From contig NZ_CP106951.1 of assembly GCF_030419005.1 (NCBI RefSeq), forward strand, positions 1,922,001 to 1,986,000: a DNA stretch of 64,000 nt, written 5' to 3'. The position numbers and the translations under genes are program-made. Shown here in pieces: positions 2,058 to 53,140 of this stretch. Under the pieces are notes generated by a model, which was not told the DNA's origin, ran no database searches, and saw only the letters and a list, made by a program, of their open reading frames with translations. Position 1 is the stretch's first letter. Each line of letters begins with the position of its first letter. This stretch comes from Eleftheria terrae (lineage in GTDB: Bacteria > Pseudomonadota > Gammaproteobacteria > Burkholderiales > Burkholderiaceae_C).

Positions 2058-3332
2058 ATGCAAGACACCACGCACGCCCTTCCCACCGACGAGGCCACCG
2101 CCAACCCTCCGACGATCCTCAAGCATCCGGGCTTCCTGCGCTTGCTCCTGGGCAGCTCCTGCTCGCTGCTGGGCGACCAGTTCACCATGATCGCCACCTC
2201 GTGGCTGGTCTTCAAGCTCACCGGCAGCGGCCTCGCGCTCGGCACGGTGCTGGCCGTCGTCGGCCTGCCGCGCGTGGCCTTTCTGCTGATTGCCGGCGCG
2301 CTGGTCGATCGTCATTCGCCTCGCCACATCCTGCGTGCTGCGGCCTTCACCGGGTGTCTGCTGCTGGCGCTGCTCGGCACGCTGGTGATTACCGACAAGC
2401 TCACGCTGGCGGGACTCTACGTCTTCGCTTTCCTGATGGGCCTGGTCGGCACCTTCGCGATTCCTGCACGCATGGCCATGCTGCCCCGCATCGTGCAGCC
2501 GGAGCAGCTGCCCCAGGCCAACTCCATCATGATGGGCGTGAGCCAGATCTCGATCCTGGTGGGCCCGCTGCTCGCGGGCCTGCTGGTGAGCACCTCCGAG
2601 GGCCTGGGCGTGGCCTTTCTCGTCGATGCGCTGTGCTTCCTCATCGCCGCTGTGACGGTCCCGGCACTCACGGTCACGCCGGCGCAAGAACCGGAGAGCG
2701 AACAACGGCAGGGCAACCAGCATGTGGTGCGGTCCATCCTCGAAGGCATCCGCTGGCTGTGGTCGGACAAGCTGCTGCGCCTGTTGACGCTCTACTGGAG
2801 CATCGCGGTGTTCCTCGCCAGCGGCACCGTGCAGGTCGGTCTGCCGATCCTGGTGAAGGAACAGATGGCGCTGGACAGCACCGCTTTCGGTGCGCTGATA
2901 TCGGCGAACGGCTTCGGGCAGCTTCTGGGCATGCTGCTGTCCGGGCTGCGGCTGCAGAAGACCCTGTCGCTGGGCCTGGCCGTCTGCCTGATCGATTTCT
3001 TCGCCGGCCTGGCCATGCTCGGCATGGGCCTGAACCACTACCTGGTGGTTGGCGTCGCGCTGATGTTCACGCTCGGCGCTGGCGCCGGCTTCGTCGAAGT
3101 GCGCCTCTTCACATGGATCCAGCAGCGCATTCCCAGCGGGCTGCTGGGGCGCATCATCAGCATCATGACCCTGATCATGACCGCCGTGGCACCCGTGTCC
3201 GCCCTGCTGGCCGGCGTGTTCACGCAGTTTGTGTCGATCACCACGCTCTTCATGGTCGTCGGCCTGTGCCTCTCTGGCTTCTCTCTGCTGTCGATGTTCA
3301 GCCCCACGCTCAGGAGCGTGCGGGCCGAGTGA
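2058..3332 (+). CDS. MFS exporter, EntS-like (MFS_3 family)
   Basis: A 424-residue inner-membrane transporter with about 12 hydrophobic segments. Family: MFS_3 (enterobactin exporter EntS and macrolide-efflux-like proteins). Diagnostic stretches are the N-terminal helix FLRLLLGSSCSLLGDQFT, the loop-2 motif DRHSPRHILRA (MFS motif A region), and ARMAMLPRIVQPEQLPQANS followed by a glycine-rich helix. The start is placed at the ATG at 2058, because the upstream part of the frame (from 1584) is low-complexity and unlike a transporter N-terminus. No good Shine-Dalgarno sequence is visible. It lies 621 bp upstream of the NRPS genes in the same direction, so by context it probably exports the peptide or gives self-resistance. 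A GC-rich hairpin 13 nt after the stop suggests its transcript can end before the NRPS. Confidence 0.85.
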   Translation: MQDTTHALPTDEATANPPTILKHPGFLRLLLGSSCSLLGDQFTMIATSWLVFKLTGSGLALGTVLAVVGLPRVAFLLIAGALVDRHSPRHILRAAAFTGCLLLALLGTLVITDKLTLAGLYVFAFLMGLVGTFAIPARMAMLPRIVQPEQLPQANSIMMGVSQISILVGPLLAGLLVSTSEGLGVAFLVDALCFLIAAVTVPALTVTPAQEPESEQRQGNQHVVRSILEGIRWLWSDKLLRLLTLYWSIAVFLASGTVQVGLPILVKEQMALDSTAFGALISANGFGQLLGMLLSGLRLQKTLSLGLAVCLIDFFAGLAMLGMGLNHYLVVGVALMFTLGAGAGFVEVRLFTWIQQRIPSGLLGRIISIMTLIMTAVAPVSALLAGVFTQFVSITTLFMVVGLCLSGFSLLSMFSPTLRSVRAE

Positions 3333-3344
3333 GGCGAGGCGCAA

Positions 3345-3371
3345 GCGCGGGGCCGCGATGGGGCCCCGCGC
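3345..3371 (+). terminator. GC-rich hairpin after the exporter gene
   Basis: A perfect 10-bp inverted repeat (GCGCGGGGCC / GGCCCCGCGC) with a 7-nt loop starts 13 nt after the MFS stop codon. No T-run follows, so it is not a textbook intrinsic terminator. It could still be a pause, an RNA-stability structure, or a Rho-assisted end. Confidence 0.45.
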
Positions 3372-3953
3372 GCCGCGACAAGAGGACCTTGCGGGCGTGC
3401 CCGCGCGCTTGCCCGAGCGTACAGGCAGGGAAAGTTCTAGCAGGCGCTGCGGCCAGTCTCCGTGCGCCATGGGGCGGTGACCGCGCAATCCTGACAGGTT
3501 ACCGGCCCATCGCTTCTCCCTATCCTGCCGCTGGTTCGGGGCCTGTTGATATCGGCAGTCCTCATGCGCGGCCTCTCACGAGAACGGTGACGACCGGGCC
3601 ACAAGCCGGGTCCACCACGCCGCACGCACCTTGTCACCCAGCGCAAACAACGATGGACCACAACGCAGGAACCTCCGCCCGCGCCTGGCGCGCCCCAGCG
3701 CCGCTTGCAAGCCCGAGCACCGTCCATCCCCCTTCGTCCCCAGCGTTGCGCACCGTGCCGGCCTGAAGCCGTCATCAATGCGACATCGCGGCTCCATTCA
3801 ATGACCTGGCTCGCGCCGGTGTAGCACGCGGCCGGCCCTCGGCCTGACGGGCTCGCCGACATCGGCCCTGGCGCCGGGCATCTGGCCGTCTTTCCGGCGG
3901 GGCCGCGGCACCGCTCCTCAACATCGATCTCGGCATCCATCAAGGAAGAGCAA
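3372..3953. other. Intergenic region upstream of the NRPS genes
   Basis: This spacer between the exporter and the first NRPS gene carries no recognisable gene. It must hold the promoter of the biosynthetic operon unless that is driven from the exporter, but I find no convincing -35/-10 pair by eye. A ribosome-binding site (GGAAGAG, about 3943-3949) precedes the NRPS ATG at 3954. Confidence 0.5.
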
Positions 3954-6900
3954 ATGAGTCATGTAGATCGCCTGCCCTTGTCGGCACCGCAGCTGGAGAT
4001 GTGGTTCGCGCAGCAGCTCGATCCGGCGAACCCGCTGTATGACAGCTGCGGCTGGCTCGACATCCGCGGCGATCTCGACCTTGGCCGCTTCGAAGCCGCC
4101 ATCCGCCAGGTGCAGGAAGAAGCCGAAGCGCTGCGCTTGCGGCTCACGCAGGACGATGAAGGCCCGCACCAGCACATCGGCCCTCGGGCTGCCACACCGC
4201 TGCGCGTGACCGACCTGTCCGGCGAAGACCGACCCCTGCGGGCCGCCCAGGAAAGGATGCGCGACGACGCAGCCACCGTGTTCGACCTCCTGTCGGACCG
4301 GCTCTACACCTATGAACTGTTCAAGCTCGGGCCGGCGCACTTCGTCTGGTACCAGCGTTATCACCACGTCATCATCGACGGCCAGAGCCTGACGCTCATC
4401 GTCCGCCGGGTGGTGGACGTCTACAACGCCTTGTGCGCGGGACAGGCCGCGGAGGAATGCGGCTTCGGGCCGTTCGCCGACCTGCTCGCCGAGGACCGAC
4501 TCTACCGCAGCTCGGATCGCTACCAAGCCGACGCCGAGCATTGGCGCCAGTACCTGGCCCAGGCGCCGGAGGCTGGCCCGCTGAGCGGGCGGCAGGCACC
4601 TCACGCGCGGGCCTTTCGGCGCCAGACCTGCTTCATTCCGGAGGCACTCGCCACAGCGCTGCTGCAGGCGGAGCGGCGCACGGGCAGCCCATGGCCGCAG
4701 CTGCTCACGGCCGCCACCGCGGCCTATCTGCAGTCGATCGCCAACCGGCCGGACATGGTGTTCGACTTCCCCGTGGCCGCCCGCAGCCGGGCGACACGCC
4801 AGGCGCTCGGCATGCTGGCCAACACGCTGCCCTTGAAGCTGGCCTTCGCCCCCCATGCCAGCCTGGCGCAGCTCGCGCAGCAGGCCGGGCGGGAGATCCT
4901 CAAGGCACTCAAGCACCAGAACTTCCGTGGCAAGGACATCCGCGGCTTCCATGGTGGCAGCGGGCGGGTCGCGTCCTTCGGACCGCGCATCAACATCCTG
5001 CCCTTCGACTTCGCGTTCACGCTGGCTGGTGTGCCGGCGCGCTTGCACTCCCTCTCCAACGGGCCGGTGGATGATCTCGCGGTCACGGTGCAGGGACAAC
5101 TCGGCACGTCGGAGTGCGAGCTGCATCTGGACGCCAATGCGCAGACCTACAGCGAGGCCGAGGTGGCCTGGCACCTCAGGCGCTTGCTGCGCTTCATCGA
5201 GCAGGGCCTTGCCGATCCGTACCGCCCTCTGGCCCGGATCGATCTGCTGGACGCGGCGCAGCGCCGGCAATTGCTGCTCGACTGGCAGCCGGCTCCGCGG
5301 CCGCTGCCCGCCGCGACGCCCCTGGCCTTGTTCGACCAGCAGGTGGCCAGCCGGCCGCAGGCCATCGCTCTCACGGCTGCCGACCGATGCTTCACTTATG
5401 CGCAGCTCGATGAAGAGGCGAACCGACTCGCTCATGTCCTGAACGACCTGGGCATCGGTGCCGAGCAAGGCGTGGCCCTCTTCCTGCAACGCTCGCCCGA
5501 GCTCGTCATCGCCGAGCTGGCGGTGCTCAAGGCCGGCGGCTACTACCTGCCGCTGCACGAGCAGCACCCCGATGCCCGCCTGGTGCAGCTGCTGCGCGAC
5601 ACTGGCGCCCGCGTGCTGCTGGCCGATGCCAGCATCGACGGCCGCGGCTTCCTGCAGCTCGACGGCCACCGCGCTCAGCTGCTGCGCCTGGACCGCCCGC
5701 TGCCGCCGCTGCAGCGGCCCCCGGCCCGCCGGCCGGCCGCCGCCCATCCCGAGCAGCTGGCCTACGTGATGTACACCTCCGGCTCCACCGGCACCCCAAA
5801 GGGTGTCGCGGTGCGCCAGCGCGACATCGCCGAGTTCGCCCAGGACCGCCGCTTCCAGGCCGGCCACGATTGCGTGCTGCTGCAGGCGCCGCATGCCTTC
5901 GATGCCTCCACCTACGAGCTGTGGGTGCCCCTGCTCAACGGCGGGCGCATCGTCGTCGCGCCCCCCGGCCAGCTCGATGCCGCCGAGCTGCAGCGCTTGG
6001 TCGCACAGGCCGGCGTCACCAGCCTGTGGATGACCGCCGGGCTCTTCCATGAGCTGGCCGACTCGGCCCCGGCGCTGTTCGCGCCGCTGCGCCAGGTGTG
6101 GGCCGGTGGCGATGTGCTGTCGGCCAGCGCCATCCGCCGCCTGCAGGCGCTGCACCCCGCGCTGCAGGTCGTCAACGGCTACGGCCCGACCGAAACCACC
6201 ACCTTCGCGCTGAGCCATGCGGTGCCCCGGCTCGACGAGCAGGCCCACAGCGTGCCCATCGGCACGCCGCTGGACAACATGCAGGCCTATGTGCTGGACG
6301 GTGCGCTGCGGCCGCTGCCGCCGGGCGTGGCCGGCGAGCTGTACATCGCCGGCAGCGGCCTGGCGCGCGGCTACCTGCAGCGCCCCGGCCTGACGGCCGA
6401 GCGCTTCGTGGCCAACCCCTTCACGCCCGGCCAGCGCATGTACCGCTCCGGCGACCTGGCCCGCTGGCGCGAGGACGGCCAGCTCGACTACCTCGGCCGG
6501 GCCGACCAGCAGGTCAAGGTACGTGGCTTCCGCATCGAGCTCGGCGAGATCGAGGCGGCCCTGGCCGCGCTCGGCTTCCCCCACAACAGCGTCATCGCCC
6601 GCGAGGACCAGGCCGGCCACAAGCAGCTCGTCGCCTACCTCGTCACCACCGCCCCGCTGGACGCCCCGGCCCTGCGCCAGCAGCTTGCCGAGCGCCTGCC
6701 CGAGTACATGGTGCCGGCCGCCTTCGTCACGCTGCCTGCCCTGCCGCTCACCCCCAACGGCAAGCTCGACCGCAAGGCCCTGCCCGCCCCCGACTTCACC
6801 CCCGCCAGCACCCGCGCCCCGCGCACCGCGCAGGAGCAGCTGCTGTGCACCCTCTTCGCCGAGGTGCTCGGCCTGCCACAGGTCGGCATCGACGACAGCT

Positions 6901-7050
6901 TCTTCGCCCTCGGCGGCCACTCGCTGCTGGCCACCCGGCTGGTCAGCCGCATCCGCAGCACGCTGGGCGTGGAAGTCGCCATCCGCACGCTGTTCGAGTC
7001 GCCCACCGTCGAGGCGCTGGCCCGCCAGCTCGCCGCCGCCGGCCAGGCCC
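3954..7050 (+). other. NRPS module 1: starter C - A(Val-like) - T
   Basis: The opening C domain is unlike the other ten. It resembles the EntF C domain ([26 protein letters not shown]), a type found where a peptide starts with an acyl or aryl group. Catalytic HHVIIDG is intact at residues 137-143. A1 pocket residues read as D-A-Y-W-W-G-G-T-F-K by alignment to GrsA, a Val-type code. T1 has the GGHSLL form that precedes ordinary C domains. The acyl donor is not encoded in the window. Confidence 0.8.
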
Positions 7051-10000
7051 GCCCGCCGCTGCTGCCACAACCCCGCCCGGCCACGCTGCCGCTGTCCTTC
7101 GCGCAGCGCCGCCTGTGGTTCCTGCACCAGTTCGAAGGGCCCAGCGCCACCTACAACATCCCGCTCGCACTGCGCCTGGACGGCGAGCTCGATGTCGCCG
7201 CCCTGCGTGCCGCCCTGGGCGACCTGCTGGCCCGCCACGAGAGCCTGCGCACCCGCTTCCCCGACACCCATCCGCCCTGCCAGCAGGTGCTGCAGCAGGC
7301 CGAGCCGCACCTGCAGCTGATCGACAGCAGCGACGCCCGCCTGGCCGACGACCTGCGTCAGGCCGCCGCCCATGCCTTCGACCTGGCGCAGGACCTGCCG
7401 CTGCGCGCCACACTGCTGCGCCTGGCCCCGGCCCAACAGGTGCTGATGCTGGTGCTGCACCACATTGCCGGCGACGGCGCCTCGATGGGCCCGCTGGCGC
7501 GCGACCTGGCGCAGGCCTATACGGACCGCCTGCAAGGCCAGGCCCCGGCCTGGGCGCCGCTGCCGGTGCAGTACGCCGACTACACCTTGTGGCAACAGCA
7601 GCTGCTGGGTGAGGAGAGCGACCCTACGAGCCGGCTGTCGGCCCAGATCGCGTATTGGTCGGAAGCCCTGCGTGGCATTCCCGAGCAACTGCCCTTGCCG
7701 ACCGACCGGCCCCGCCCGCCGGTGTCCAGCCAGCGCGGGCAGCACCTGCGCTTCACGATCGATGCGGCGCTGCACCGGCAGTTGCTCGCGGTCGCCCACG
7801 CGCACCGGGTCACGCTGTTCATGGTGCTGCAGGCGGCACTCGCCACGCTGCTGACGCGGCTGGGCGCCGGCACCGACATCCCGCTGGGCAGCCCGATCGC
7901 CGGGCGCACCGACAGTGCGCTGGACGACCTGGTGGGCCTGTTCATCAACACCCTGGTGCTGCGCACCGACACCGCCGGCAACCCGGGCTTCGACACCTTG
8001 CTGGAGCGGGTGCGCCAGGCCGACCTGGCCGCCTACGAGCACCAGGACCTGCCCTTCGAGCACTTGGTCGAGCAGATCAACCCGGTGCGCTCGCTGTCGC
8101 ACCATCCGCTGTTCCAGGTCATGCTGATGTTGCAGAACGAGGGCAGCACTGCATTGTCCCTGCCCGGCCTGGCCTGCCGCGAAACGCACTTCGACTTCGC
8201 CATCGCGAAGTTCGACCTCAGCTTCGACTTCACCGAGCAGCGCCAGGCCGACGGCTCGCCCGCCGGCCTGCAGGGCCTGCTGGAATACGCCACCGATCTG
8301 TTCGACACCGCCACTGCACACAGCCTCGCCGCCCGCCTGCTGCGCCTGCTGCAAGCGGTGGCGGCCGACCCGACGCAAGCCATCGGCGACATCGACCTGC
8401 TCGACGCCGGCGAGCGGCAGCAACTGCTACTGCAGTGGAACGACACCGCCCGGGCACCGGCCTGCCCGCCGCTGCACACCGCCTTCGAGCAACAGGCCCG
8501 CCTCACGCCGCAGGCCATTGCCGCCACCTGCCACGGCAGCACCCTCAGCTACGCCGAGCTCGACCGCCGCGCCAACCGCGTCGCCCACACCCTCATCGCC
8601 CGCGGCATCGGCCCCGAGGACATCGTCGCCCTGGCCCTGCCCCGCTCGCTGGACCTGCTCGCCTGCCTGCTCGGCGTGCTCAAGGCCGGCGCCGCCTTCC
8701 TGCCCCTGGAGCCCGCCCACCTCGGCACCCGCCAGCGCGAGCTGCTCGCCGACGCCCGCCCCGTGCTGCTCATCGCCGAGCACCGCCTGGCCCACGAACT
8801 CGCCGCCCCCCTCCCCGCCCTGTGCCTGGACACCCCCGCCGCGCAACAGGCCCTCGCCTCGGCCCCCGACCACCCGCCGGGCGACGCCGAGCGCCGCCGA
8901 CCGCTGCTGCTGCAGCACCCGGCCTATGTCATCTACACCTCCGGCTCCACCGGCACCCCCAAGGGCGTGGTGCTGCCCCACGCCGGCCTGGCCAACCTGC
9001 TGGCCCACCACCTCGAGACCTTCTTCCCCTCGGTGCTGCACGGCAGCGCCGAGCCCCGTGCCCGCTTCGCCCTGACCGCGCCGTTCGCCTTCGACACCGC
9101 CCTGGAAGGCCTGTTGTGGATGGCCGCCGGCCACGAGCTGCACCTGCTGGACGATGCCACCCGCCGCGACGCCGAGCTGCTGCTCGACCACGTCCTGCGC
9201 CACCGCATCGACGTGCTCGACCTCACTCCCACCCACTTCGAGCAGCTCCACCCGCTGGGCCTGCTGCAGCCCGGGCGCGGCTGGCCCCGCGCCCTGGTGC
9301 TCGGCGGCGAGGCCCTGGGCGAGTCCCAGTGGCGTGCCCTGCTCGCCGCCCCGCACGTGCGCGCCTACAACTTCTACGGCCCCACCGAGTGCACCGTCGA
9401 TGCCTGCCATGCCGCCATCGACCCCCGCACCAGCCGCAACACCATCGGCTCGCCGCTGCGCAACACCCGGCTTTACGTGCTCGACGAGCGCCTGCACCCG
9501 GTGCCCCCGGGCGTGCCCGGCGAGCTCTACATCGCCGGCCCCGGCCTGGCCCGCGGCTACCTCGGCCGCCCGGCACTGAGCGCCGAGCGCTTCGTCGCCA
9601 ACCCCTTCTCCCCGGGCCAGCGCCTGTACCGCTGCGGCGACCTCGTCCGCTGGCGCGCCGACGGCCTGCTGGAGTACCTCGGCCGCGCCGACCAGCAGCT
9701 CAAGGTGCGCGGCTTCCGCATCGAGCCCGCCGAGGTCGAGGCCGCGCTGGCCCACTGCGGCCACCCGGGCTGCGCGGTCATCGGCCGCGAGGACCGGCCC
9801 GGCCACCTGCAGCTCGTCGCCTACCTGCCTGCGTCCGCGCCGCTGGACCGCAACGCCCTGCGCCAGCAGCTCGCCGAGCGCCTGCCCGAGTACATGGTGC
9901 CGGCCGCCTTCGTCACGCTGCCCGCCCTGCCGCTCACCCCCAACGGCAAGCTCGACCGCAAGGCCCTGCCCGCCCCCGACTTCACCCCCACCAGCACCCG

Positions 10001-13000
10001 CGCCCCGCGCACCGCGCAGGAGCAGCTGCTGTGCGCCCTCTTCGCCGAGGTGCTCGGCCTGCCACAGGTCGGCATCGACGACAGCTTCTTCGCCCTCGGC
10101 GGCGACAGCATCAGCTCCATCCAGCTCGTCAGCCGCGCCCGCCAGGCCGGCCTGCGCCTGAGCGCCCGCGACGTCTTCCAGCACCAGTGCGTGCACGCCC
10201 TGGCCGCCGTGGCCGTGCCGCTGCAGCCGACCGAGCACACGCCAGCCGTCGAGCCGGTCGGCCCGCTGCCGGCCACCCCCATCATCCAGGACCTGCTCGA
10301 GCAGGGCGGCCCGCTGCAGCACTTCCAGCAGTCGCTGCTGCTACAGGTGCCGCCCCTGCAGCACGAGCGCCTGCTGCGCGCGCTGCAGGCCCTGCTCGAC
10401 CACCACCACGCCCTGCGGCTGTGCCTGCAGCCCGGCCACCAGCTGGCGGTGCTGCCCGTCGGCAGCGTCCTGGCCGCCGACTGCCTGCACCACGTGCCGC
10501 TCGAGCGCCTGACCCCCGAGCTGCTGCGCCAGCACGCCCAGGCCGCCCAGGACCGCCTCGACCCGCTGGCCGCCCGGCTGCTGCAGGCCGTGTGGTTCGA
10601 CCTCGGCCCCGACTCCCGGCTGCTGCTGCTCATCCACCACCTGGCCGTCGACGGCGTCTCCTGGCGCATCCTCACCCAGGACCTGCAGGCCGCCTGGCTC
10701 GCCAGCGCCGACCCCCACCCCATCGCCCTGCCACCGGTGCCCACCTCCTGGCGCCAATGGGCGCTCGCCCTGCCCGCCGCCGCCGCCGCCCGCACCGAAC
10801 AGCTGCCCCTGTGGCAGGCCCAGCTGCAGGGCGAGGACCCGCCGCTGGCCAGCCTCCCGCTGGACCCCCGGCTCGACACCTTCTCCAGCCAGCTCAGCCT
10901 CAGCCAGCGCCTGGACAGCGCCACCACCCAGTGCCTGCTCACCCAGGCCCCCGAGCGCATCCACGGCCGCGTCAACGATGTCCTGCTGGCCGCCTTCGCG
11001 CTGGCCGTCATCGACTGGCGCCAGCGCCTGGGCCGCGGTGCGCTGCCCCGCCTGCGCTTCGACCTCGAGGGCCATGGCCGCGAGGACATCGTGCCCGGCG
11101 CCGACCTCTCGCGCACCGTCGGCTGGTTCACCAGCCTCTTCCCGGTCCAGCTCGAGCTGCCCGACGTCGATGTCGCCGAGGCCCTGCGCAGCGGCGGCCC
11201 CGCGCTGCAGCGCGCCCTCAAGCACACCAAGGAGCAGCTGCGCCGCCTGCCCGAGCAGGGCATCGGCTGGGGCTTGCTGCGCCACCTGCACGCCCCTTCC
11301 CGCGAGCAGCTGCGTGCCCTGCCTGCCCCGCAGATCGGCTTCAACTACCTCGGCCGCTTCGCCGTCGGCCAGCCCGCCCAGGACTGGAGCGTCGCCCCCG
11401 ACGAGGGCAGCTTCGGTGGCGGCAGCGATTCCCTGCAGCCCCTGGCCCATGTGCTCGAGCTCAACGCCCTCACCCAGGACGGCCCCCACGGCCCCGAGCT
11501 CGTCGCCCACTGGGGCTGGGCCGCCCGGCTGCTCGACCACGCCGCCGTCCACGACCTCGCCAACTCCTGGTTCGCCGCCCTGCGCCGCATCGCCCACGAC
11601 GCGGCCCAGGCCTCCGGCGCCGCCCTCACGCCTTCCGACGTGCCCCTGGCCGGCCTCGACCAGGCCACCATCGACGCCCTGCAATCGCAGCATCCCGGGC
11701 TGGTCGACATCCTGCCGCTGACGCCGCTGCAGCACGGCTTCCTGTTCCACGCGCTCTACGACGGGCAGGCCGCCGACGCCTATGTCACCCAGATGGTGTT
11801 CTCGCTCGACGGCCCGCTCGATGCGGGCGCGCTGCGGGCCGCCGCGGCGGCGCTGCTGCGGCGCCATCCGAACCTGGGGGCGGCCTTCGTCCAGCCCGCA
11901 GGGCAGGCCCCGCTGCAGCTGATCGCCGGCGAGGTGGCCCTGCCCTGGGAGGAGGTCGACCTGAGCGATGAGCCGGCCGAACGCCGCCAAGCGGCCTTCG
12001 AGGCGCTGCTGCGCCATGACCAGCGCCAGGGCTTCGAGCTGCACCGTGCACCGCTGCTGCGCTTCACGCTGGCCCGCCTGGATGCCGAATGCCATCGCCT
12101 GATCTTCACCAGCCACCACATCCTGCTGGACGGCTGGTCGACCCCGCTGCTGTTGCAGGAGCTGTTCACGCTGTACGGCGAGGGCAGCACGGCCACCACC
12201 CTGCCGCACGTGGCACCCTACCGCGACTACCTGGCCTGGCTCGCCTCGCGGGACCGGCCGGCCGCCCGGCTGGCCTGGCAGGCCGCCCTGGCCGGCGTGG
12301 AGGAGCCGACCCGGGTGGCGCCCCGCCGCGCGGCCAGCGTGCTGCCCGAGCTCCTGACCCTCCAGCTGCCGCGCGAGCAGTGCGAACCGCTGACGCAGCT
12401 GGCGCGCCGCCTCGGGCTGACCTTGAACACCTTGGTGCAGGCCGCCTGGGCCTTGCTGCTGGGCCAGCTGAGCCACCGCGACGACGTGGTGTTCGGTACC
12501 ACCGTGTCCGGCCGGCCTCCCGAGTTGCCAGGCGTCGAGCGCATGGTGGGCCTGTTCATCAACACCGTGCCGCTGCGCTTGCAGCTGCGCCCCGAGGAAC
12601 CGGTCCAGGCCCTGCTGGCCCGCCTGCAGCAGCAGCAGTCCGCATTGCTGGAGCACCAGCACCTGGGGCTGACCGAGATCCAGCAACTGGCCGGGCTGCC
12701 GGAGCTGTTCGACACCCTGGTGGTGTTCGAGAACTTCCCCCTCGGCAAGGAGACGCTGGGCGCCGCTGCAAGCGGCTTGCGCCTGGCCCTGCACAGCCAC
12801 CACGGTGGCGACTCCTCGCACTACCCGCTCGGCCTGGTGGCCGTGCCGGGCGAGGCGCTGACGCTGAAGTTCAGCTGGCGCCCCGACGTCTTCACGCCGG
12901 CCGCCGCCCAGGCCATTGCCACCGGCTACCTGCACATCCTGGGGGCCCTGGCCACCGACCCGGCACAACCGGTCGGCCGCCTGCCGCTGATCGGACCGGC

Positions 13001-34500: not shown

Positions 34501-34690
34501 GTGCTGGGCCTGCCGCGTGTCGGCATCACCGACAGCTTCTTCGAGCTGGGCGGCCATTCCCTGCTCGCCACCCGCCTGGTCAGCCGCATCCGCAGCACCT
34601 TGCACACCGACATTGCGATTCGCACCCTGTTCGAAGCGCCAAGCGTCGAGGCGCTCGCCCGCCGCCTGTCGGCCGCCGCCGAAGCGCGGC
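31543..34690 (+). other. NRPS module 8: C(DCL) - A(Asx-like) - T
   Basis: The C domain begins [17 protein letters not shown] at the very N-terminus, fitting a D-residue donated by E7 of the upstream protein. The A8 pocket reads D-G-T-K-M-G-Q-I-G-K. The D-x-T-K start with Lys278 and final I-G is shared with Asp/Asn codes (D-L-T-K-...-G-K), so an acidic or amide residue is likely, but Gly236 and Gln322 make it a variant. Confidence 0.72.
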
Positions 34691-40600: not shown

Positions 40601-43600
40601 TCGACGCCGGCGAGGAGCGACCCCAGCCGGATCGCAGCGAGCCGCCCCTAGCTGCGGCTGCAGGCCTCACGCTGCCCGCTCTGTTCGAGCAGCAGGCCGC
40701 CGCAACGCCGGCGGCACTGGCGCTGCGCTTCGAGGACCAGGCCCTCAGCTATGCAGAGCTCGATCGGCAAGCCAACCGGCTGGCACACATCCTGATCGCA
40801 CAGGGCATTGGCGCGCAGGACGTGGTGGCCCTGGCGATCCCGCGGTCGCCGCAGATGCTGGTCGCCCTGCTCGGCACGCTCAAGGCCGGTGCTGCCTACC
40901 TGCCGCTCGACGCCGAGCAGCCGGCCGAGCGCCTGTGCGGCATGCTGGAGGACGCCCAGCCCGCCCTGCTGCTCACCGTCGAGGCGCTGGCGCAGCGCCT
41001 GCCGGACCGGGTGGCGGTGTTCGCCATCGACACGCCGCATGCACAAGCCAGCATGCAGGAAGCCCCGTCGCATGCGCCGGTCGACAGCGAGCGGGCGCGG
41101 CCGCTGCTGCCAACCCACCCCGCCTACCTCATCTACACCTCCGGCTCCACCGGCAAGCCCAAGGGGGTGGTGGTGGAGCACCGCCAGATCGTCGCCTCGA
41201 CCCGCGCGCGCCAGGCCTTCTACCCGGCGCTGGACAGCGTGTTGCTGCTGCCTGCCCTGGCTTTCGACGCCTCGCTGGCGCCGATCTTCGGCGCACTCAC
41301 CACCGGTGCCACCCTGGTGCTGCCGCCCCCCGGCCTGGAGCACGATGCGCTGGCACTGGCCGAGTTGGTCGAGCGGCGGCAGGTGCAGGGCTGGGTCAGC
41401 GTGCCCGCCTTGTATGCGGCCGTCCTCGAACATGCGGCGGATCATCGATTGTCCAGCCTGCGCTGCGTGGTGCTGGGCGGCGAATCGGCGCCCGCCGCGC
41501 TGCTGCAGCGGCACGCGGCGTCCGGCCCGCGGGAGGCGGTGCTCTACAACGAATACGGCCCGACCGAGGCCACCGTGTGGAGCGCAGCGGCCCGGCTGGC
41601 CCTGGATGGCAGCGACACCGCTGCCACCATTGGCCGGCCGATCGCCGGGGTGCAGCTGTACGTGCTGGACGACAGCCTGCATCCGCTGCCGCCGGGCGTG
41701 GCCGGCGAGCTGTACATCGCAGGCGACGGCCTGGCGCGCGGCTACCTGCAGCGCCCCGGCCTGACGGCCGAGCGCTTCGTGGCCAACCCCTTCACGCCCG
41801 GCCAGCGCATGTACCGCTCCGGCGACCTGGCCCGCTGGCGCGAGGACGGCCAGCTCGACTACCTCGGCCGGGCCGACCAGCAGGTCAAGGTACGTGGCTT
41901 CCGCATCGAGCTCGGCGAGATCGAGGCGGCCCTGGCCGCGCTCGGCTTCCCCCACAACAGCGTCATCGCCCGCGAGGACCAGGCCGGCCACAAGCAGCTC
42001 GTCGCCTACCTCGTCACCACCGCCTCGCTGGACGCCCCGGCCCTGCGCCAGCAGCTCGCCGAGCGCCTGCCCGAGTACATGGTGCCGGCCGCCTTCGTCA
42101 CGCTGCCCGCCCTGCCGCTCACCCCCAACGGCAAGCTCGACCGCAAGGCCCTGCCCGCCCCCGACTTCACCCCCACCAGCACCCGCGCCCCGCGCACCGC
42201 GCAGGAGCAGCTGCTGTGCACCCTCTTCGCCGAGGTGCTCGGCCTGCCACAGGTCGGCATCGACGACAGCTTCTTCGCCCTCGGCGGCGACAGCATCAGC
42301 TCCATCCAGCTCGTCAGCCGCGCCCGCCAGGCCGGCCTGCGCCTGAGCGCCCGCGACGTCTTCCAGCACCAGTGCGTGCACGCCCTGGCCGCCGTGGCCC
42401 AGCCCGTCGAGGACAGCCCCGCCGCGCCCAGCGTCGCCCCGCTCGGCGAGCTGCCCGCCACCCCCATCGTGCAGTGGTTCTTCGAGCGCGGCGGCCCGCT
42501 CGATCACTTCAGCCAGTCCGTGCTGCTGCAAGTCCCCGCCCTGCACCCCGAGCCCCTGCGCCTGGCCCTGCAGGCCCTGCTCGACCACCACGACGCGCTG
42601 CGCCTGCGCCTGCTGCCCGGCCAGCGCCTGCGCATCGAGCCCCCCGCCAGCGTGCCCGCCGCCGACTGCCTGCACTGGGTGTCCCTGCAGGGCCTGCCCC
42701 CCGCCGAGCGCGAGCGCTGCCTGCAAGCCCAGGCCGCCGCCGCCCAGCAGCGCCTGGACCCCGCCGCCGCCCGCCTGCTGCAGGCCGTCTGCTTCGATGA
42801 CGGCGCCCACTCCCGCCTCTTCCTCGTCATCCACCACCTCGCCGTCGACGGCATCTCCTGGCGCATCCTGCTGCCCGACCTGCAGGCCGCCTGGCTCGCC
42901 GCCTCCACCGGCCGCCCCGTCACCCTGCCTCCGGTGCGCACCTCCCTGCGCCAGTGGGCCCTGGCCCTGCCCCAGGCCGCCGAGCGCCGCGCCGCCGAGC
43001 TGCCCCTGTGGCAGGCCATGCTCGACGGCGACGACCCCGAGCTGGCCCACCGCCGGCTCGACCCCGCCCGCGACACCGTCGCCTCCCAGCGCTCCCTGGC
43101 CCTGCGCCTGCCGCCGGAATTCACCCAGCCCCTGCTGACCCGCGCCCCGCAGTGCTTCCACGGCCGCATCAACGACGTCCTGCTCACCGCCTTCGCCCTC
43201 GCGCTGCTCGACTGGCGCCAGCGCCTGGGCCGCGGCAGCACCCCGCGCATCCGCTTCGACCTCGAGGGCCACGGCCGCGAGGCCCTCCTCGACGGCGCCG
43301 ACCTCTCCCGCACCGTCGGCTGGTTCACCAGCCAGTTCCCGCTGCAGCTCGACCTCTCGGGCATCGACCTGGCCCAGGCCCTGCACGGCGGCGCACCCCT
43401 GCTGGCCGCCCTCAAGCAGGTCAAGGAGCAGCTGCGCCGCCTGCCCGACCACGGTGTCGGCTGGGGCCTGCTGCGCTACCTGCACGGCCCCTCCCGCCAG
43501 GCCCTGCAGGCCCGCCCCGCCCCGCAGATCGGCTTCAACTACCTCGGCCGCTTCGCCGTCGGCCAGCCCCAGGACTGGAGCCTCGCCGCCGAGGCCGCCT

Positions 43601-46600
43601 CGCTCGGCACGCCGGGCGATGCCGCCCAGCCCCTGGCCCACCTGCTCGACCTCAACGCCACCACCGAGGACGGCCCCGACGGCCCCGCCCTGTGCGCCGC
43701 CTGGAGCTGGGCTGGCGAGCTGCTGCCCGAGTCCGCCGTGCAGGCCCTGGCCGAGTCCTGGTTCGCCGTGCTGCGCCGCATCGCCCAGCTCGCCGAGCAC
43801 ACCCCCGCCCCCGTCTTCACCCCCTCGGACCTGCCACTGGTGCGCCTGCGGCAGCACGAGATCGAGGCCATCGAGGCCACCCAACCCCCCCTGCTCGACA
43901 TCCTGCCGCTGGCGCCGCTGCAGCAGGGCTTCCTCTTCCACGCCCTCTATGACCAGCACGCCCCCGACGCCTATGTCGTGCAGCTGGTCTTCACCTTCGA
44001 CGGCCCGCTCGACCACGACGCCCTGCGCAGCGCCGCACAGGCCCTGCTGCAGCGCCATGCCAACCTGCGTGCCGCCTTCCTCCACCACGGCCTCAGCCAG
44101 CCCGTGCAGGTCATCCCCCGCCACCTCGAGCTGCCCTGGCGCAGCCTCACGCTCGAAGCCGGCGCGCTCGAGCCCTTCCTGCAGGCCGACCGCGAGCAGC
44201 GCTTCGAGCTGTCGCACGCGCCGCTGCTGCGCTTCACGCTGGTTCGCACCGCGCCGCAACGCCACCACCTGGTGTTCACGACACACCACATCCTGCTGGA
44301 CGGCTGGTCCTCGCCCATCCTGCTGCGCGAGCTGTTCTCGCTCTACCGCAGCCGGGGGTCGGACGCCGGCCTGCCCCGTGTGACGCCCTACCGCGACTAC
44401 CTCGGCTGGCTCGCCGCCCGCGACGCCAGCGCCGCCCGTGAAGCCTGGCGGCAGGCCCTGGCGGGCCTGCAGGAGCCCACGCGGCTGGTGCCGCCCTCCA
44501 CCGCCCGGGCCTTGCCGGACACGCTGGCCACCACCCTGCCGGCGGCCCTCGGCGAGAGCCTGAGCCAGCTGGCACGCCAGCACCGGCTGACCCTCAACGT
44601 GGTGATCCAGGCCGCCTGGGCGGTGCTGCTCGGGCGGCTGACGCGGCGCGACGACGTGGTGTTCGGCATCACCGTCTCGGGCCGCCCGCCCGAGCTGGCA
44701 GGCATCGAGCAGATGGTGGGCCTGTTCATCAACACCGTGCCGCTGCGGCTGCAGCTGCGGCCGGCCGAATCGGCGCGCGACCTGCTGGCGCGGCTGCAGG
44801 AGCAGCAGTCGGCCTTGATGGAGCATCAGCAGCTCAGCCTGGCCGAGATCCAGCGGCTGGCCGGGCTGGGCGAGTTGTTCGACACCCTGGTGGTGTTCGA
44901 GAACTACCCGGTGCAGCCCGGCGACACGGGCGCCGACGGCGCGCCGCTGGCGGTCCGCCTGCACAGCAACCACGGCGCCGACACCTCGCACTACGCGCTG
45001 GGCCTGACGGTGATCCCCGGCACGCCCCTGCGGCTGGACTTCAGCTACCGGCCCGACTGCTTCGGGCGCACCGAGGTGCGGGCCCTGGCCGACCGCCTGG
45101 GCCGCATCCTCGAAGCGTTTGCGCTGCGGCCCCAGCAACCGGTCGGCCGCATCGACCTGCTGCGCCTCGCGGAGCGCGAGCGGCTGCTGCTGAGCTGGAA
45201 CGACACGCTGCAGCCGCTCGCGCCCGCCACCGTGACCTCGATGTTCGAAGCCCAGGTGGCCCGCACGCCGCACGCGATCGCGCTGCGCTTCGAAGGCGGC
45301 ACCCTGAGCTACGCGGCGCTCGACCGCCGGGCCAACCGGCTGGCGCATCGCCTGCAGGCGCTGGGCGTCGGCCCGGACACCATCGTCGGCCTGTGCATCG
45401 AGCGCTCGGTGGACATGGTGGTGGGCCTGATCGGCATCCTGAAAGCCGGTGGCGCCTACCTGCCGCTGGACCCGGCCTACCCGGCGCAGCGCCTGGCCTA
45501 CATGCTGGAGGATGCCACCCCGCCGGTGATCGTGACCCATCCCGGCTGCGCCGGCGTGCTGCCGGCATCACCCGCCCGGCAGGTGATGGTCGACGACGGT
45601 GAACAGGCCGACCACGACACACCGCGGGGCCGGCCCTTGCCCGCCCACCTGGCCTATGTGCTCTACACCTCCGGCTCGACCGGCCGGCCCAAGGCGGTGA
45701 TGGGCACCCATGGCCTGGTCGCCAGCCGGCTGCAATGGGACGTGGCACCGCATGGCGTCAACGACCAGGCCACCGAGCTGTACGCGCACAAGACGACGAT
45801 GAACTTCATCGACGCCCTGTGGGAGCTGTTCATGCCGCTCACCCGCGGCCAGCAGGTGCTGGTGGTGCCGCAGGCCGCAGCGCAGGACCCGGCCCGCCTG
45901 GTCGAGCTGCTCGGCACGGCCGGCGCGACCCGCATCGTGCTGGTGCCCTCGCTGCTGCGGGCCATGCTCGACAGCGGGCCCGAGCTGCAGCGGCGCCTGC
46001 ACCGGCTCACCTACTGGTCATGCAGCGGCGAAGCGCTGGGCAGCGAGCTGGCCACCCTGTTCCGGCAGAAGCTGCCGAACTCACGGCTGCTCAACATCTA
46101 CGGCACCTCCGAGTTCTGGGACGCCACCTGCCACGAGGTCGGCGACGACTGTGGCGGCCGCCACGGCGTGCCGCTCGGCCGCCTGATCTCCAACATGCAG
46201 GCGTATGTGCTCGACCCCTGCCTCAAGCCGGTGCCGCCCGGCGTCACCGGCGAGCTGTACATCGCCGGCAGCGGCCTGGCGCGCGGCTACCTGCGGCGCC
46301 CGGGCCTGACCGCCGGCCGCTTCGTCGCCAACCCCTTCCATCGCGGCACCCGCATGTACCGCACCGGCGACCTCGCCAGCTGGCGTGCGGACGGCACGCT
46401 GGAGTACCTGGGCCGCGCCGACCACCAGGTGAAGATCCGCGGCCTGCGCATCGAGCCCGGCGAGATCGAGGCGGCATTGAGCGCCGAGCCCGGCGTGGCG
46501 CAAGCCTGCGTGGTGGCGCGCGAAGACCGGCCCGGCCAGGCACGCCTGGTCGCCTACCTGGTGGCCGAGCCCGGGCACCCGGTGGCGGTCGACAGCCTGC

Positions 46601-47769
46601 GCCCGTCGCTGGCGGCACGCCTGCCGGCCCACATGGTGCCGTCGGCCTTCGCCGTGCTGCCGCAGATGCCGCTGCTGCCCAACGGCAAGATCGACCGCAA
46701 GGCCCTGCCGGCCGTCGAGCCGGCGGCACGCACGGCCCGTGCCCCCCGTAGCCGGCAGGAAGAGGTGCTGTGCGCCTTGTTCGCCGAGGCGCTGGCGCTG
46801 CCGGAGGTCGGCGTGGACGACGACTTCTTCGAGCTGGGCGGCCATTCCCTGCTGGCACCGCGGCTGATCAGCCGCATCCATGAGCGGCTGGGTGCGGAGC
46901 TGTCGATCCGCACGCTGTTCGAGGCGCCCACGGTGGCGGCGCTCGCCGAGCGCATCGGGCATCCGGTCGAGGCGGCCGCCTCGTTCGAGCCCTTGCTGCC
47001 GCTTCGGCCGCGCGGCGCGCTGGCGCCCTTGTTCTGCATCCATCCGGCCGGCGGCCTGGCCTGGTGGTATGGCGGCCTGGCCGGGCATGTCCATGCCGAG
47101 CGGCCGCTGTACGGGCTGCAGGGACGGGGCGTGCAGGCCGGGGCAGCGCTGGCGGGCAGCATCGAAGAGGTGGCGGACGACTGCCTGCAGCAGATACGCG
47201 CCGTGCAGCCCCGCGGCCCCTACCACCTGCTCGGCTGGTCCTTCGGCGGGCTGGTGGCCTTCGAGGTGGCCACGCGGCTGCAGCGCAGTGGCGAGGCCGT
47301 CGGCCTGCTGGCCCTGCTCGACAGCTACCTGCTGACGGCCGACCCGCAGCGGGTGCAGCACAACGACAAGCCGGCGCACCGGGTGCTGGCCGACTTCCTC
47401 GCGTTTGCCGGCTGCGACCTGTCCGGCGTGGATGTGGCGACGCTCGACTTCGAACAGGCCGCCGCGCTGCTGCGGCGCAGCGCCTTTGCCGGCCTCGATG
47501 CCGGCCAGCTCGAGCGCTTCATCAGCTCGATGCGCAACGACGTGGGCCTGATGAGCCGCTTTGTCCCGGGCGCGGCCTTCGACGGCGACCTGGTCTACTT
47601 CACCGCGCTGAAGGACAAGCCGCCTGGCGCGCCGCAGGCCAGCGACTTCCAGCCGCATGTACACGGCCGCATCCTCAACCACGATCTTCCGTGCTCGCAC
47701 GATGAGATCGCCCATCCCCAGTTCCTGGCCCGGATCGGCTCGATCCTGTCCGGGCGATACGGAGTCTAG
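31543..47769 (+). CDS. Non-ribosomal peptide synthetase, modules 8-11 with thioesterase (5408 aa)
   Basis: A four-module terminating NRPS. Domains (residues): C8 1-440 (HHILLDG at 144), A8, T8 Ser1006; C9 (HHIASDG 1185), A9, T9 Ser2057, E9 (HH 2237); C10 (2727), A10, T10 Ser3584, E10 (HH 3764); C11 (4248), A11, T11 Ser5102; type I thioesterase about 5150-5400. The thioesterase has nucleophile Ser5233 in GWSFGG, Asp5260 in LLDSY and His5386 in CSHDEI, so the catalytic triad is complete; it releases the peptide by hydrolysis or cyclisation. The start is the ATG at 31543, which gives [16 protein letters not shown] directly before the first C motif, with TGGA 8 nt upstream. It lies inside the last codons of the previous gene. 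The frame is open further upstream (from 30829), but that part is only a shadow of the E7 coding sequence. Confidence 0.96.
34691..39310 (+). other. NRPS module 9: C(LCL) - A(Val-like) - T - E
   Basis: The A9 pocket is the same as A1 (D-A-Y-W-W-G-G-T-F-K). DNA from the C-A linker to the carrier GG motif is nearly identical to module 1. The carrier then switches to GGDSISS and an E domain, so this Val-like residue is predicted to be D while the first is L. Confidence 0.8.
36071..37707 (+). repeat. 1.64-kb direct repeat, copy b (whole A9 domain)
   Basis: Copy of the A1 coding block inside module 9. Downstream of the shared GG codons the carrier changes from the His to the Asp form. Confidence 0.88.
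37102..39565 (+). repeat. 2.46-kb direct repeat, copy a (A9 end, T9, E9, start of C10)
   Basis: Pairs with 41683-44146 (offset 4,581 bp), with few base differences. The right boundary lies in the N-terminal part of the DCL domain, where the codons for LELPWRS are shared and the sequences then diverge. Confidence 0.9.
39311..43890 (+). other. NRPS module 10: C(DCL) - A(unknown) - T - E
   Basis: The C domain starts [18 protein letters not shown]. The A10 pocket reads D-A-A-V-V-G-E-V-W-K around the unusual core [12 protein letters not shown]. The last three positions (E-V-W) recall His-type codes, but I have no firm match. The E domain is nearly identical to E9. Confidence 0.72.
41683..44146 (+). 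repeat. 2.46-kb direct repeat, copy b (A10 end, T10, E10, start of C11)
   Basis: Second copy of the 37102-39565 repeat. The A10 pocket region lies outside it, so the two modules keep different substrates while sharing the C-terminal A subdomain, T, E and the start of the next C domain. Confidence 0.9.
43891..47766 (+). other. NRPS module 11: C(DCL) - A(beta-amino acid-like) - T - TE
   Basis: A11 reads [10 protein letters not shown] where other A domains read FDxSxWE, so position 235 is Ile, not Asp, and Asp moves to 236 (residues 4755-4761). The rest reads about W239, V278, S299, S301, I322, then a shifted D near 330/331 in [14 protein letters not shown]. This resembles the beta-alanine code V-D-W-V-I-S-L-A-D-K. 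The ATP/AMP motifs ([17 protein letters not shown]) are intact. The carrier GGHSLLAPR and a single thioesterase follow. Confidence 0.78.
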
Positions 47770-47771
47770 CC

Positions 47772-49043
47772 ATGACCGTCCCATCCGACCCCGTCGTGCA
47801 CAAGCAGCTGCCGCTACAGGGCAGGCCCTGGAGCGAGCTGGAGCAGGCGATGACGGAGATGCGCGACCGCGACGCCGATTGGCGCCGCGGCCGCACCCCG
47901 CTGCACGTCTATTTCGCTGGCGACGAAGTGCTCGACGTCGCGCGCCGCGCCTATGCGATGTTCATGAGCGAGAACGCGCTGGCGCCGGCCGCCTTTCCCA
48001 GCCTGGGGCGCATGGAGCAGGAGGTGGTCGGCATGGCGCTGGCGCTGCTCGGCGGCGGTGAGCGGGCCTGCGGCACCCTCACCTCCGGCGGCACCGAAAG
48101 CATCATCCTCGCGGTGCGCAGTGCCTGGCAGGCCTTCCGCCGTGGCCGAGGCACCCCGCCAGGCCGGCCGCACCTGCTGCTGCCCGACAGTGCCCACCCG
48201 GCCTACGACAAGGCGGCCGACCTGATGGGCCTGGCCATCGTGCGCGTGCCGCTCGGCGACGACTACCGCGCCTGCCTGCACGAGCTGCGGCGGCAGCTGC
48301 GCCCGGACACCGTGATGATGGTGGCCTCGGCGCCCTGCCTGCCTTTTGGCACCATCGACCCGGTCGAGGCGATCGGCGAGCTGGCGCTCGAGCATGGCGT
48401 GTGGCTGCATGTCGACGCCTGCATCGGCGGCTTCCTGGCACCCTTCGTCGCGCGCTTCAAGCCCGACCTGCCGCGCTTCGACCTCGCCGTGCCGGGCGTG
48501 CGATCGCTGTCGGCCGACCTGCACAAGTTCGGCTACGCCGCCAAGGGAGCATCACTGGTGCTCTATGCCGATGCCGAGGACCAGCAGGGCCAGCACTTCG
48601 CCTTCGGCAACTGGCCCAAGGGGCTCTACCGCACCGAGACGCTGACCGGCACCCGGCCCGGCGGCGCGGTCGCCGCTGCCTGGGCCGTGATGCACCATCT
48701 CGGCGAAGCCGGCTACCTGGCCGTGGCACGGCGCGTGATGGACACCCGCGACCGGTATGTGCGGGGCCTGCAGGCCTTGCCCGGCGTGCGCGTGCTGGGC
48801 CAGCCACCGCTGAGCGTGCTGGCCTATACGGCCGACCGCTTGGACGTGCATGCCCTGGGCGACGGGCTGGAGGCACGCGGCTGGTATGTCAGCCGCCTGT
48901 CGGCGCCGCCCGCACTGCACATGACGGTGACGCCCGCGCATGCCCAGGCCGTCGAGGCCTACCTGCAGGACGTGCAGGCGCTGCTGGAGCAGCCCGGCCC
49001 GCCCCTGTCGCGCGGCGCACCGCGCCGCGTGGTGACGTACTGA
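47772..49043 (+). CDS. PLP-dependent decarboxylase/lyase (SPL/MfnA-like group)
   Basis: A 423-residue soluble fold-type I PLP enzyme. The PLP lysine is K252 in [17 protein letters not shown], which closely follows the sphingosine-1-phosphate-lyase motif (DxHKYGxAPKG). [10 protein letters not shown] holds the PLP-ring Asp, and [10 protein letters not shown] binds the phosphate. Family members are retro-aldol lyases (sphingosine phosphate lyase) or amino-acid decarboxylases (MfnA Asp/Tyr decarboxylase). The ATG at 47772 lies 2 nt after the NRPS stop, with GGAG at 47760-47763 inside the NRPS end, so it is cotranslated. By context it should make or modify a monomer. Decarboxylation of Asp to beta-alanine for module 11 is an attractive inference, because A11 lacks the alpha-amino anchor. 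A threonine-aldolase-like or other lyase role is not excluded. Confidence 0.82.
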
Positions 49044-49197
49044 GGTCGATCCGCCACACCGACGAGTGAACCATGCACACCCACCCCAGGCACACCGCGA
49101 GGGCGCCGCCCGGCCGGCAGCCCTGGTCCCACCTTCCCTACCCTCGGGATGCCCGCCAACGGGCACCCACCGACACCATCCTTCATGGAGCGCAATG

Positions 49198-49416
49198 ATG
49201 AGCAATCCCTTCGACGACGAGAACGGCACCTTCCTGGTCCTGGTGAATGACGAGAACCAGCATTCGATCTGGCCCGAGTTTGCCGAGGTGCCCGCCGGCT
49301 GGCGCGTGGTCCACGGCCCCGGCGCCCGCCAGGCCTGCCTGGAGTACGTCGAGCAGCACTGGACCGACATGCGGCCTGCCAGCCTGGTGCGGGAGCAGCA
49401 GCAGGCCACGCACTGA
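49198..49416 (+). CDS. MbtH-like protein
   Basis: A 72-residue MbtH-family chaperone that binds NRPS adenylation domains and supports their folding and activity. The full signature is present: [34 protein letters not shown], and a C-terminal helix ending [14 protein letters not shown]. Two adjacent ATGs (49195 and 49198) are possible. The second is preferred because GGAG at 49187-49190 then has a 7-nt spacing. It lies 154 bp after the decarboxylase gene in the same direction and closes the NRPS gene set. Confidence 0.95.
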
Positions 49417-53132: not shown

Positions 53133-53140
53133 GTTGGTCT

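What the first reader, a model, noticed from the sequence alone, without database searches (positions are those of the whole stretch)
2058..49416. Eleven-module NRPS system with a readable, unusual predicted peptide
Two NRPS proteins carry 11 complete C-A-T modules, five E domains, one N-methyltransferase and one TE. An exporter, a PLP enzyme and an MbtH-like protein are in line with them. Pocket residues read by eye give (acyl?)-Val, D-basic, Ser, Gly, D-N-Me-Phe, hydrophobic, D-basic, Asx, D-Val, D-X, beta-amino acid. C-domain types (start motif PLTPLQ-like after each [14 protein letters not shown] elsewhere) agree with the E-domain positions throughout. I do not recognise a known compound with this order. 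Burkholderiales lipopeptides (for example glidopeptin-type products from Schlegelella) should be compared first.
Basis: partly seen in the sequence, partly recalled or inferred. Interest (0 to 1): 0.85.

Follow-up and report, generated by a model that had tools for sequence, protein, structure and literature searches.

The report
Menaquinone-antibiotic gene cluster outside Lysobacter
This is an assembly line of two giant enzymes that very probably makes a close cousin of the known Gram-positive-killing lipopeptide WBP-29479A1, found in a Caldimonas-like bacterium and differing most clearly at one amino-acid position.

Summary
In detail: two NRPS genes (3954-31562, 31543-47769) carry 11 C-A-T modules, five E domains, one methyltransferase and one TE, with an MFS exporter, a PLP decarboxylase-like enzyme and an MbtH protein in line. 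The statement that no known compound has this order does not hold. Domain order and the substrate type at 10 of 11 positions agree with the wbp cluster of Lysobacter antibioticus; [quoted passage not shown] Among the 120 NRPS2 relatives listed, the L. antibioticus protein has the highest identity (62%), and NRPS2-PLP-MbtH order is shared. The clearest difference is module 8: Glu-type in the Lysobacter and Xanthomonas lines compared, Asn/Asp-type here (tree support 100/100). I predict an Asx8 WBP-29479A1 that binds menaquinone and lyses Gram-positive bacteria. The host is Caldimonas-like and has no hit over cut-off for the two menaquinone-pathway families tested. A known kind of system with a probable new congener. 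Product, residue 8 (Asn or Asp), residue 11 and activity are not shown.

The parts
2058..3332 (+). MFS exporter (424 aa); an ABC exporter stands in the corresponding place in L. antibioticus 13-6
   Evidence: PF07690 E 7e-33; NCBIfam best TIGR00900 and EntS, both below cut-off; ABC transporter at L044:4315-6222
3954..31562 (+). NRPS1, modules 1-7: C1-A1-T1, C2-A2-T2-E2, C3-A3-T3, C4-A4-T4, C5-A5-MT-T5-E5, C6-A6-T6, C7-A7-T7-E7
3969..5276 (+). C1, probable lipid-loading starter condensation domain
   Evidence: first domain of the protein; very long branch among the C domains (place unsure); 51% identical to C1 of the L. antibioticus protein
5331..6377 (+). A1, Val (DAYWWGGTF)
8484..9563 (+). 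A2, Arg, followed by E2 (D-Arg); DTEDVGFVD
   Evidence: fits the Arg residue pattern quoted in PMC12283262 except at 236 and 322
13074..14138 (+). A3, Ser (DVWHLSLID)
16248..17288 (+). A4, Gly (DILQLGMIW)
   Evidence: the same code is quoted for Gly domains in PMC12283262
19416..20441 (+). A5, Phe (DAWTVAAVC)
20442..22364 (+). end of A5, N-methyltransferase and T5 of module 5 (N-Me-Phe)
   Evidence: PF08242/PF08241/PF13649 above cut-off, then PF00550
22368..23738 (+). E5 epimerase, giving D-N-Me-Phe
   Evidence: TIGR01720 over its cut-off
25191..26228 (+). A6, Leu-like (DAMLVGAIC)
   Evidence: counterpart in L. antibioticus DAMLIGAVC, where the product has Leu
28335..29414 (+). A7, Arg, followed by E7 (D-Arg); core near-identical to A2
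31543..47769 (+). NRPS2, modules 8-11: C8-A8-T8, C9-A9-T9-E9, C10-A10-T10-E10, C11-A11-T11-TE
32941..34011 (+). A8, Asn/Asp-type (DGTKMGQIG); the position that differs most clearly from the Lysobacter compounds (Glu)
36121..37167 (+). A9, Val, followed by E9 (D-Val)
40684..41748 (+). A10, Trp-like (DAAVVGEVW), followed by E10 (D-Trp)
   Evidence: counterparts DAAIVGEIW (P0044), DAAIIGEVW (LesB, P0004), DAGLVGEVW (P0005, taken to be WAP-type), at the place where the printed products have Trp
45244..46293 (+). A11, beta- or omega-amino acid type (IDWVSSID, no Asp235, shortened loop)
   Evidence: a loop one residue shorter is named as a beta-amino-acid feature in PMC11253843
46294..47766 (+). end of A11, T11 and thioesterase (ring closure inferred)
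   Evidence: PF00550, PF00975 E 4e-30
47772..49043 (+). PLP decarboxylase / S1P-lyase-like enzyme; inferred supplier of residue 11
   Evidence: PF00282; MfnA model 236 bits, below its cut-off of 299; best solved relatives are S1P lyases; neighbour of a NFIDxLWE A domain in L001 and L003
49195..49416 (+). MbtH-like protein, helper of A domains
   Evidence: PF03621 E 2e-31

Best explanation
The cluster makes a WBP-29479A1-type menaquinone-binding cyclic lipodepsipeptide: acyl-Val-D-Arg-Ser-Gly-D-NMePhe-Leu-D-Arg-Asx-D-Val-D-Trp-(beta- or omega-amino acid), with Asn or Asp in place of Glu at position 8. C1 loads a hydroxy fatty acid, the 11 modules build the chain, and the TE closes the ring, most likely onto the fatty-acid hydroxyl because Val1 has none. 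The PLP enzyme makes the last building block and the MFS protein exports the product. Outside, the peptide would bind menaquinone in Gram-positive membranes and lyse them; the producer would be spared because it lacks menaquinone. Shown here: domain order, codes, orthology, synteny, no over-cut-off hit of two menaquinone-pathway families. Inferred: substrates, ring, PLP role, export, target, immunity.
For: The domain string equals that printed for wbpA-B, including the MT-E in module 5 and E after 2, 5, 7, 9, 10. In L. antibioticus 13-6 the 10 A domains seen each match their positional counterpart best, A1/A9 and A2/A7 being interchangeable. With P0044 standing in for modules 8-11, codes at the 10 positions other than 8 differ at 0 to 2 of the places read. 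P0044 is 62% identical to NRPS2 over 98% of the query, the highest identity of the 120 rows listed apart from the query itself. NRPS2-PLP-MbtH order is the same in L001. [quoted passage not shown] G000 has no MqnA-family hit and no MenD hit over cut-off. The reported WBP-29479A1 ion, m/z 743 for [M+2H]2+, fits the reported residues closed on a C9 hydroxy acid, computed 743.43; beta-alanine with a C10 acid would give the same value.
Against: Module 8 is not the Glu type of the six Lysobacter/Xanthomonas counterparts in the tree. By bit score P0044 is not the top hit: other NRPSs, several with more modules, stand above it. The exporter is MFS, not ABC. No product is known. Codes were read by alignment, not by a trained predictor; Lys517 was assumed, not read, and position 239 of A2/A7 was a gap and Glu. 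Apart from the codes named in PMC12283262, code-to-substrate links are recalled or carried over from the orthologues. Sang et al. 2019, the primary paper, was not held, so the structure is taken from two reviews. Only MenD and MqnA-type families were tested for menaquinone.
Confidence: 0.8

Rival explanations
1. The product is WBP-29479A1 itself: A8 still activates Glu despite its code, or a mixture is made.
For: The other positions agree in type. PMC12283262 says that Asp, Asn, Glu and Gln domains overlap in their codes.
Against: The A8 core lies with the DxTK domains with support 100/100, while the six Glu8 domains form their own group (99/97) next to Ser domains; core identity is 0.51-0.53 to DxTK domains and 0.40 to the four Glu8 domains printed.
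Confidence: 0.1
2. A structurally related lipopeptide with another target, because position 8 lacks the Glu found in the three Lysobacter compounds.
For: Glu8 is listed among six residues shared by lysocin E, WAP-8294A2 and WBP-29479A1.
Against: In the WAP-8294A2 alanine scan residues 4, 5, 6, 7, 10 and 11 were essential, 8 is not named; the screen that gave MBA1-6 required only Gly-X-Leu-X-X-X-Trp; in two Dyella proteins the first module, two before a Trp-like one, is also DxTK-type (P0027, P0070).
Confidence: 0.07
3. A glidopeptin-type Burkholderiales lipopeptide.
For: Host lineage is Caldimonas-like.
Against: [quoted passage not shown]
Confidence: 0.01
4. The line is as described but silent or non-functional in this strain (can be true beside the main reading).
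For: The wbp cluster was called cryptic or silent in its host; near-identical internal repeats show recombination.
Against: Both NRPS frames are open over 9202 and 5408 codons with the expected domains and core motifs.
Confidence: 0.1

Closest known systems
WBP-29479A1 cluster (wbpA-B), Lysobacter antibioticus
   Same: 11 modules in two NRPS, same domain string, same substrate type by code at 10 of 11 positions, NRPS2-PLP-MbtH order
   Different: module 8 Asn/Asp-type instead of Glu-type; MFS instead of ABC exporter upstream; about 60% protein identity; different host order
Xanthomonas medicagonis NRPS2 (P0072) with PLP enzyme (P0127)
   Same: four modules with Val-type, Trp-type and IDWV-type domains; both proteins listed with a longest contig of 5415250 bases, so probably one genome
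   Different: module 8 Glu-type; 57% identity; product not known from the calls made
Lysocin E (LesB, P0004) and WAP-8294A2
   Same: Ser-Gly-NMePhe-Leu core, D-Trp10, menaquinone target
   Different: 12 modules; lysocin has Thr1, Gln9, Ile11, Thr12; WAP has Ser1, Asn2, Orn7, Asn9, Orn11, N-Me-Val12
MBA1-MBA8 (soil libraries, Paracoccus, Dyella, Pseudomonas)
   Same: motif Gly-X-Leu-X-X-X-Trp; a Dyella mobilis protein (P0027; the species is the stated source of MBA6) also opens with a DxTK-type module two before a Trp-like one
   Different: module content otherwise different in the Dyella proteins read; the compounds were made as synthetic predictions
Glidopeptin / malleipeptin
   Same: Burkholderiales lipopeptides
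   Different: 12 modules, another sequence

Membership tests
Menaquinone-binding lipodepsipeptide clusters | Predicted motif Gly-X-Leu-X-X-X-Trp | tested here: met
   A4 Gly, A6 Leu-like, A10 Trp-like at the right spacing; motif from PMC12447380. The Leu and Trp calls lean on the Lysobacter counterparts
Menaquinone-binding lipodepsipeptide clusters | Lipid-initiating first C domain | tested here: inconclusive
   C1 opens the protein and has a very long branch, but no reference starter C domains were in the tree
Menaquinone-binding lipodepsipeptide clusters | Product binds menaquinone and not ubiquinone | not testable with these tools
   needs the peptide
WBP-29479A1 cluster | 11 modules, 7+4, with MT-E in module 5 and E in 2, 5, 7, 9, 10, TE at end | tested here: met
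WBP-29479A1 cluster | Substrate types at positions 1-7 and 9-11 | tested here: met
   10 of 10 modules compared have codes differing at 0 to 2 of the places read
WBP-29479A1 cluster | Glu at position 8 | tested here: not met
   DGTKMGQIG against DVWHVGSIG in P0044 and P0072; tree. Filed as a relative, not as the WBP-29479A1 cluster
WBP-29479A1 cluster | PLP enzyme and MbtH behind NRPS2 | tested here: met
   same order in L001; that this holds in the ATCC 29479 producer was not checked
Lysocin / WAP-8294A clusters | 12 modules | tested here: not met
   11 modules here; 12 in printed lysocin and WAP lists
Glidopeptin cluster | 12 modules with printed glidopeptin order | tested here: not met

The most novel reading that the evidence does not exclude
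A Burkholderiales-made menaquinone-binding antibiotic whose module-8 substrate core is of an Asn/Asp type inside an otherwise WBP-like line: a natural test of whether the Glu shared by the three Lysobacter compounds is needed for target binding. Which of the two types came first is not known.
Probability: 0.6. Interest if true: 0.5.

Novelty: new member of a known kind. Interest (0 to 1): 0.42.

Why it matters
Menaquinone binders are a small antibiotic class; the review read (PMC12447380) names Lysobacter, Dyella, Paracoccus, Pseudomonas and soil DNA as sources. A natural variant from a Caldimonas-like host would add a producer order and change one of six residues that the three Lysobacter compounds share. 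It also ties an uncharacterised PLP enzyme to an unusual last building block, which can be tested directly.

Tried and rejected
Glidopeptin: wrong module number and order. Donor of A8 within the same genome: the best other match is only 51% (A4 of this same cluster), so no recent local donor was found. Plasmid searches: the 20 rows listed of 124 and of 145 records show NRPS matches of about 71-76% identity covering at most 45% and 23% of the query; some unlisted records have higher-identity places, which I did not look at. Relatives of the PLP enzyme: 17 of 399 family genomes at E 1e-60, G000 included, the others at most 51% identical; within the genus 9 of 9 genomes have a match at E 0.001 but only G000 has more than a weak one (next best genome E 4e-8). 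The C11-A11-T-TE block hit 5 of 399 family genomes at E 1e-200, G000 included, the four others at 41-43%. In both family searches only the best few candidates of each genome were scored. Other beta-amino-acid papers gave no matching code in the passages seen. The global alignment of NRPS1 with its Lysobacter counterpart left modules 5-6 unaligned (6189 of 9202 residues aligned); for those I use the A-domain identities. Structure prediction was not used. My confidence in the main reading was lowered from 0.88 to 0.8 on checking, because the drop of identity at A8 is less singular than I first wrote (A10 against P0072 is about as low).

Literature limits: PMC12447380 was read in its outline, section 4 part 2 and sections 7 and 8; PMC9581180, PMC13163355, PMC11451712, PMC12243021, PMC12305651, PMC7756342, PMC12283262, PMC11253843 and PMC13126170 in found passages only; Sang et al. 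2019 not held; the Brady and Li MBA papers were seen only through the review. That I met no Burkholderiales menaquinone binder in print rests on the listings, which show 20 of 47, 20 of 42, 10 of 4310, 15 of 375, 15 of 21 and 1 of 1 papers.
Full report
What is there. Two overlapping NRPS genes (3954-31562 and 31543-47769) carry 11 C-A-T modules, five E domains, one methyltransferase and one thioesterase. They lie between an MFS exporter (2058-3332) and a PLP enzyme and MbtH protein (47772-49043, 49195-49416). A tree of the 16 C and E domains groups the five C domains that follow an E (100/99), which supports the D/L assignment; C1 is a very long branch of unsure place, compatible with a starter domain but not proof of one.

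Which peptide. Pocket codes read by alignment (nine positions, Lys517 assumed) are: 1 DAYWWGGTF (Val), 2 and 7 DTEDVGFVD (Arg), 3 DVWHLSLID (Ser), 4 DILQLGMIW (Gly), 5 DAWTVAAVC (Phe), 6 DAMLVGAIC (Leu-like), 8 DGTKMGQIG (Asn/Asp-type), 9 DAYWWGGTF (Val), 10 DAAVVGEVW (Trp-like), 11 IDWVSSID (no Asp235). PMC12283262 quotes the Gly code itself, the Ser code with Val for Ile at 330, and an Arg residue pattern that fits codes 2/7 except at positions 236 and 322. Other assignments are carried over from the Lysobacter counterparts or recalled.

What it matches. [quoted passage not shown] A second review describes it as an 11-residue depsipeptide closed on the lipid hydroxyl, active on Gram-positive bacteria, and antagonised by menaquinone but not ubiquinone. 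I checked the match with sequence. In L. antibioticus 13-6 the A domains of modules 1-7 and 9-11 were found in the same order with closely similar codes, each nearest to its positional counterpart. Module 8 was not found in the 13-6 pieces fetched (contig ends) and was taken from another L. antibioticus protein, P0044, which is 62% identical to NRPS2 over 98% of the query. That is the highest identity of the 120 rows listed apart from the query itself, though many NRPSs stand above it by bit score. Behind NRPS2 both have PLP enzyme then MbtH. Upstream, L. antibioticus has an ABC exporter where the window has an MFS protein.

Where it differs. Module 8 of L. antibioticus, X. medicagonis, LesB (lysocin) and the WAP-type proteins has DVWHVGSIG or DVWHIGSIG; the window has DGTKMGQIG. 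In a tree of A cores the window's A8 falls with eight DxTK domains (100/100) and the six Glu8 domains form their own group (99/97) near Ser domains. Along NRPS2, identity to P0044 is 0.30-0.48 in seven of the eight 50-residue windows from 401 to 800 (the other 0.68), against 0.65 for T8+C9 and 0.65 for A9. C8 is 0.63 to P0072; its 0.50 to P0044 reflects about 100 unaligned first residues. The drop alone is weak evidence: whole-domain A8 is 0.51 to both, but A10 is 0.59 to P0044 and 0.52 to P0072. The tree carries the claim. Which type is older was not determined. DGTK codes stand at positions 2 and 9 of the WAP-type line of Root690, where WAP-8294A2 has Asn; in two Dyella proteins a DxTK module stands two before a Trp-like one. 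Asn against Asp cannot be settled: PMC12283262 says both can share a code.

Residue 11 and the PLP enzyme. A11 lacks Asp235, has Asp one place later, and is one residue short in the loop after the A5 motif. PMC11253843 names a loop one residue shorter as a feature of beta-amino-acid domains, although those it describes keep Asp235, so the case is partial. The same code stands in L. antibioticus (IDWVSSID) and, with small changes, in X. medicagonis and Caballeronia glathei. Among the 43 loci around PLP relatives, within the DNA held, 2 hold A domains scoring over 400 bits, and both include a NFIDxLWE domain (five others hold only weak hits of 94-118 bits, 36 none over 60). The PLP enzyme is close to S1P lyases by sequence and matches the MfnA decarboxylase model below its cut-off; the LHKxG motif, which I take from recall as the PLP lysine site, is kept. 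I infer that it supplies residue 11, reported as aminobutyric acid in WBP-29479A1. Against this, Lysobacter Root690 has the enzyme with no NRPS A domain in its 21 kb locus.

How it would work. By analogy with the family, the peptide binds menaquinone in membranes and lyses menaquinone-using Gram-positive cells. The own genome has four MenD-family hits, all below cut-off (best 58 of 244 bits), and no MqnA-family hit (the MenD cut-off was passed in 7 and the MqnA cut-off in 4 of 14 controls). This fits self-protection by lack of target; MenA and other steps were not tested.

Host and spread. The nearest named rpoB proteins are Caldimonas at 93-94%. Among 9 genus genomes only this one has more than a weak match to the PLP enzyme. 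Among 399 family genomes, no other reported match exceeds 51% identity for the PLP enzyme or 43% for the C11-TE block. For the PLP enzyme the best named relatives are Lysobacter and Xanthomonas proteins (67-69%; one of 68% is named only uncultured bacterium), and for NRPS2 the rows of 54% identity or more that bear an organism name are Lysobacter, Dyella and Xanthomonas, and one labelled Pseudomonas. Horizontal transfer is likely but was not tested with a tree.

Verdict. A real, complete-looking cluster of a known antibiotic kind in a host lineage not named as a source in the reviews read, with a probable new congener. Ordinary in kind, useful as a natural variant.

Noticed in passing
5238-6917 vs 36028-37707; 8350-10200 vs 28201-30051: Near-identical DNA between modules 1 and 9 (98.3% over 1680 bases) and modules 2 and 7 (1 mismatch in 1850), pointing to recent gene conversion within the cluster.
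   Followed up: partly
own genome, contigs C3 and C4: 91 C/E-domain hits in the genome, with a frame of 11173 aa on C4 whose last A-domain hit ends at 736818 of 737245 bases: a very NRPS-rich strain.
   Followed up: no
L051 (Caballeronia glathei DSM 50014): A PLP relative (59%) stands just before an NRPS whose first A domain reads IDWVASID, followed by Gln-like, Asp/Asn-like and a fourth module: a different product with the same unusual type of building block.
   Followed up: partly
L002 (Lysobacter sp. Root690): PLP enzyme (64%) with no NRPS A domain in 21 kb, although a 12-module WAP-type line lies elsewhere on the same contig: possible remnant of a lost wbp cluster.
   Followed up: partly
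plasmid record NZ_CP067127.1 (Paracoccus alcaliphilus), 126676-128580: NRPS match of 73% over 21% of the query in a 306-kb plasmid; the species is the stated source of MBA4, so that cluster may lie on a plasmid.
   Followed up: no
50451-55702: Carbohydrate enzymes on the minus strand: alpha-amylase with glucodextranase C-terminal module, and GH5 with CBM6 and ricin-type lectin.
   Followed up: no
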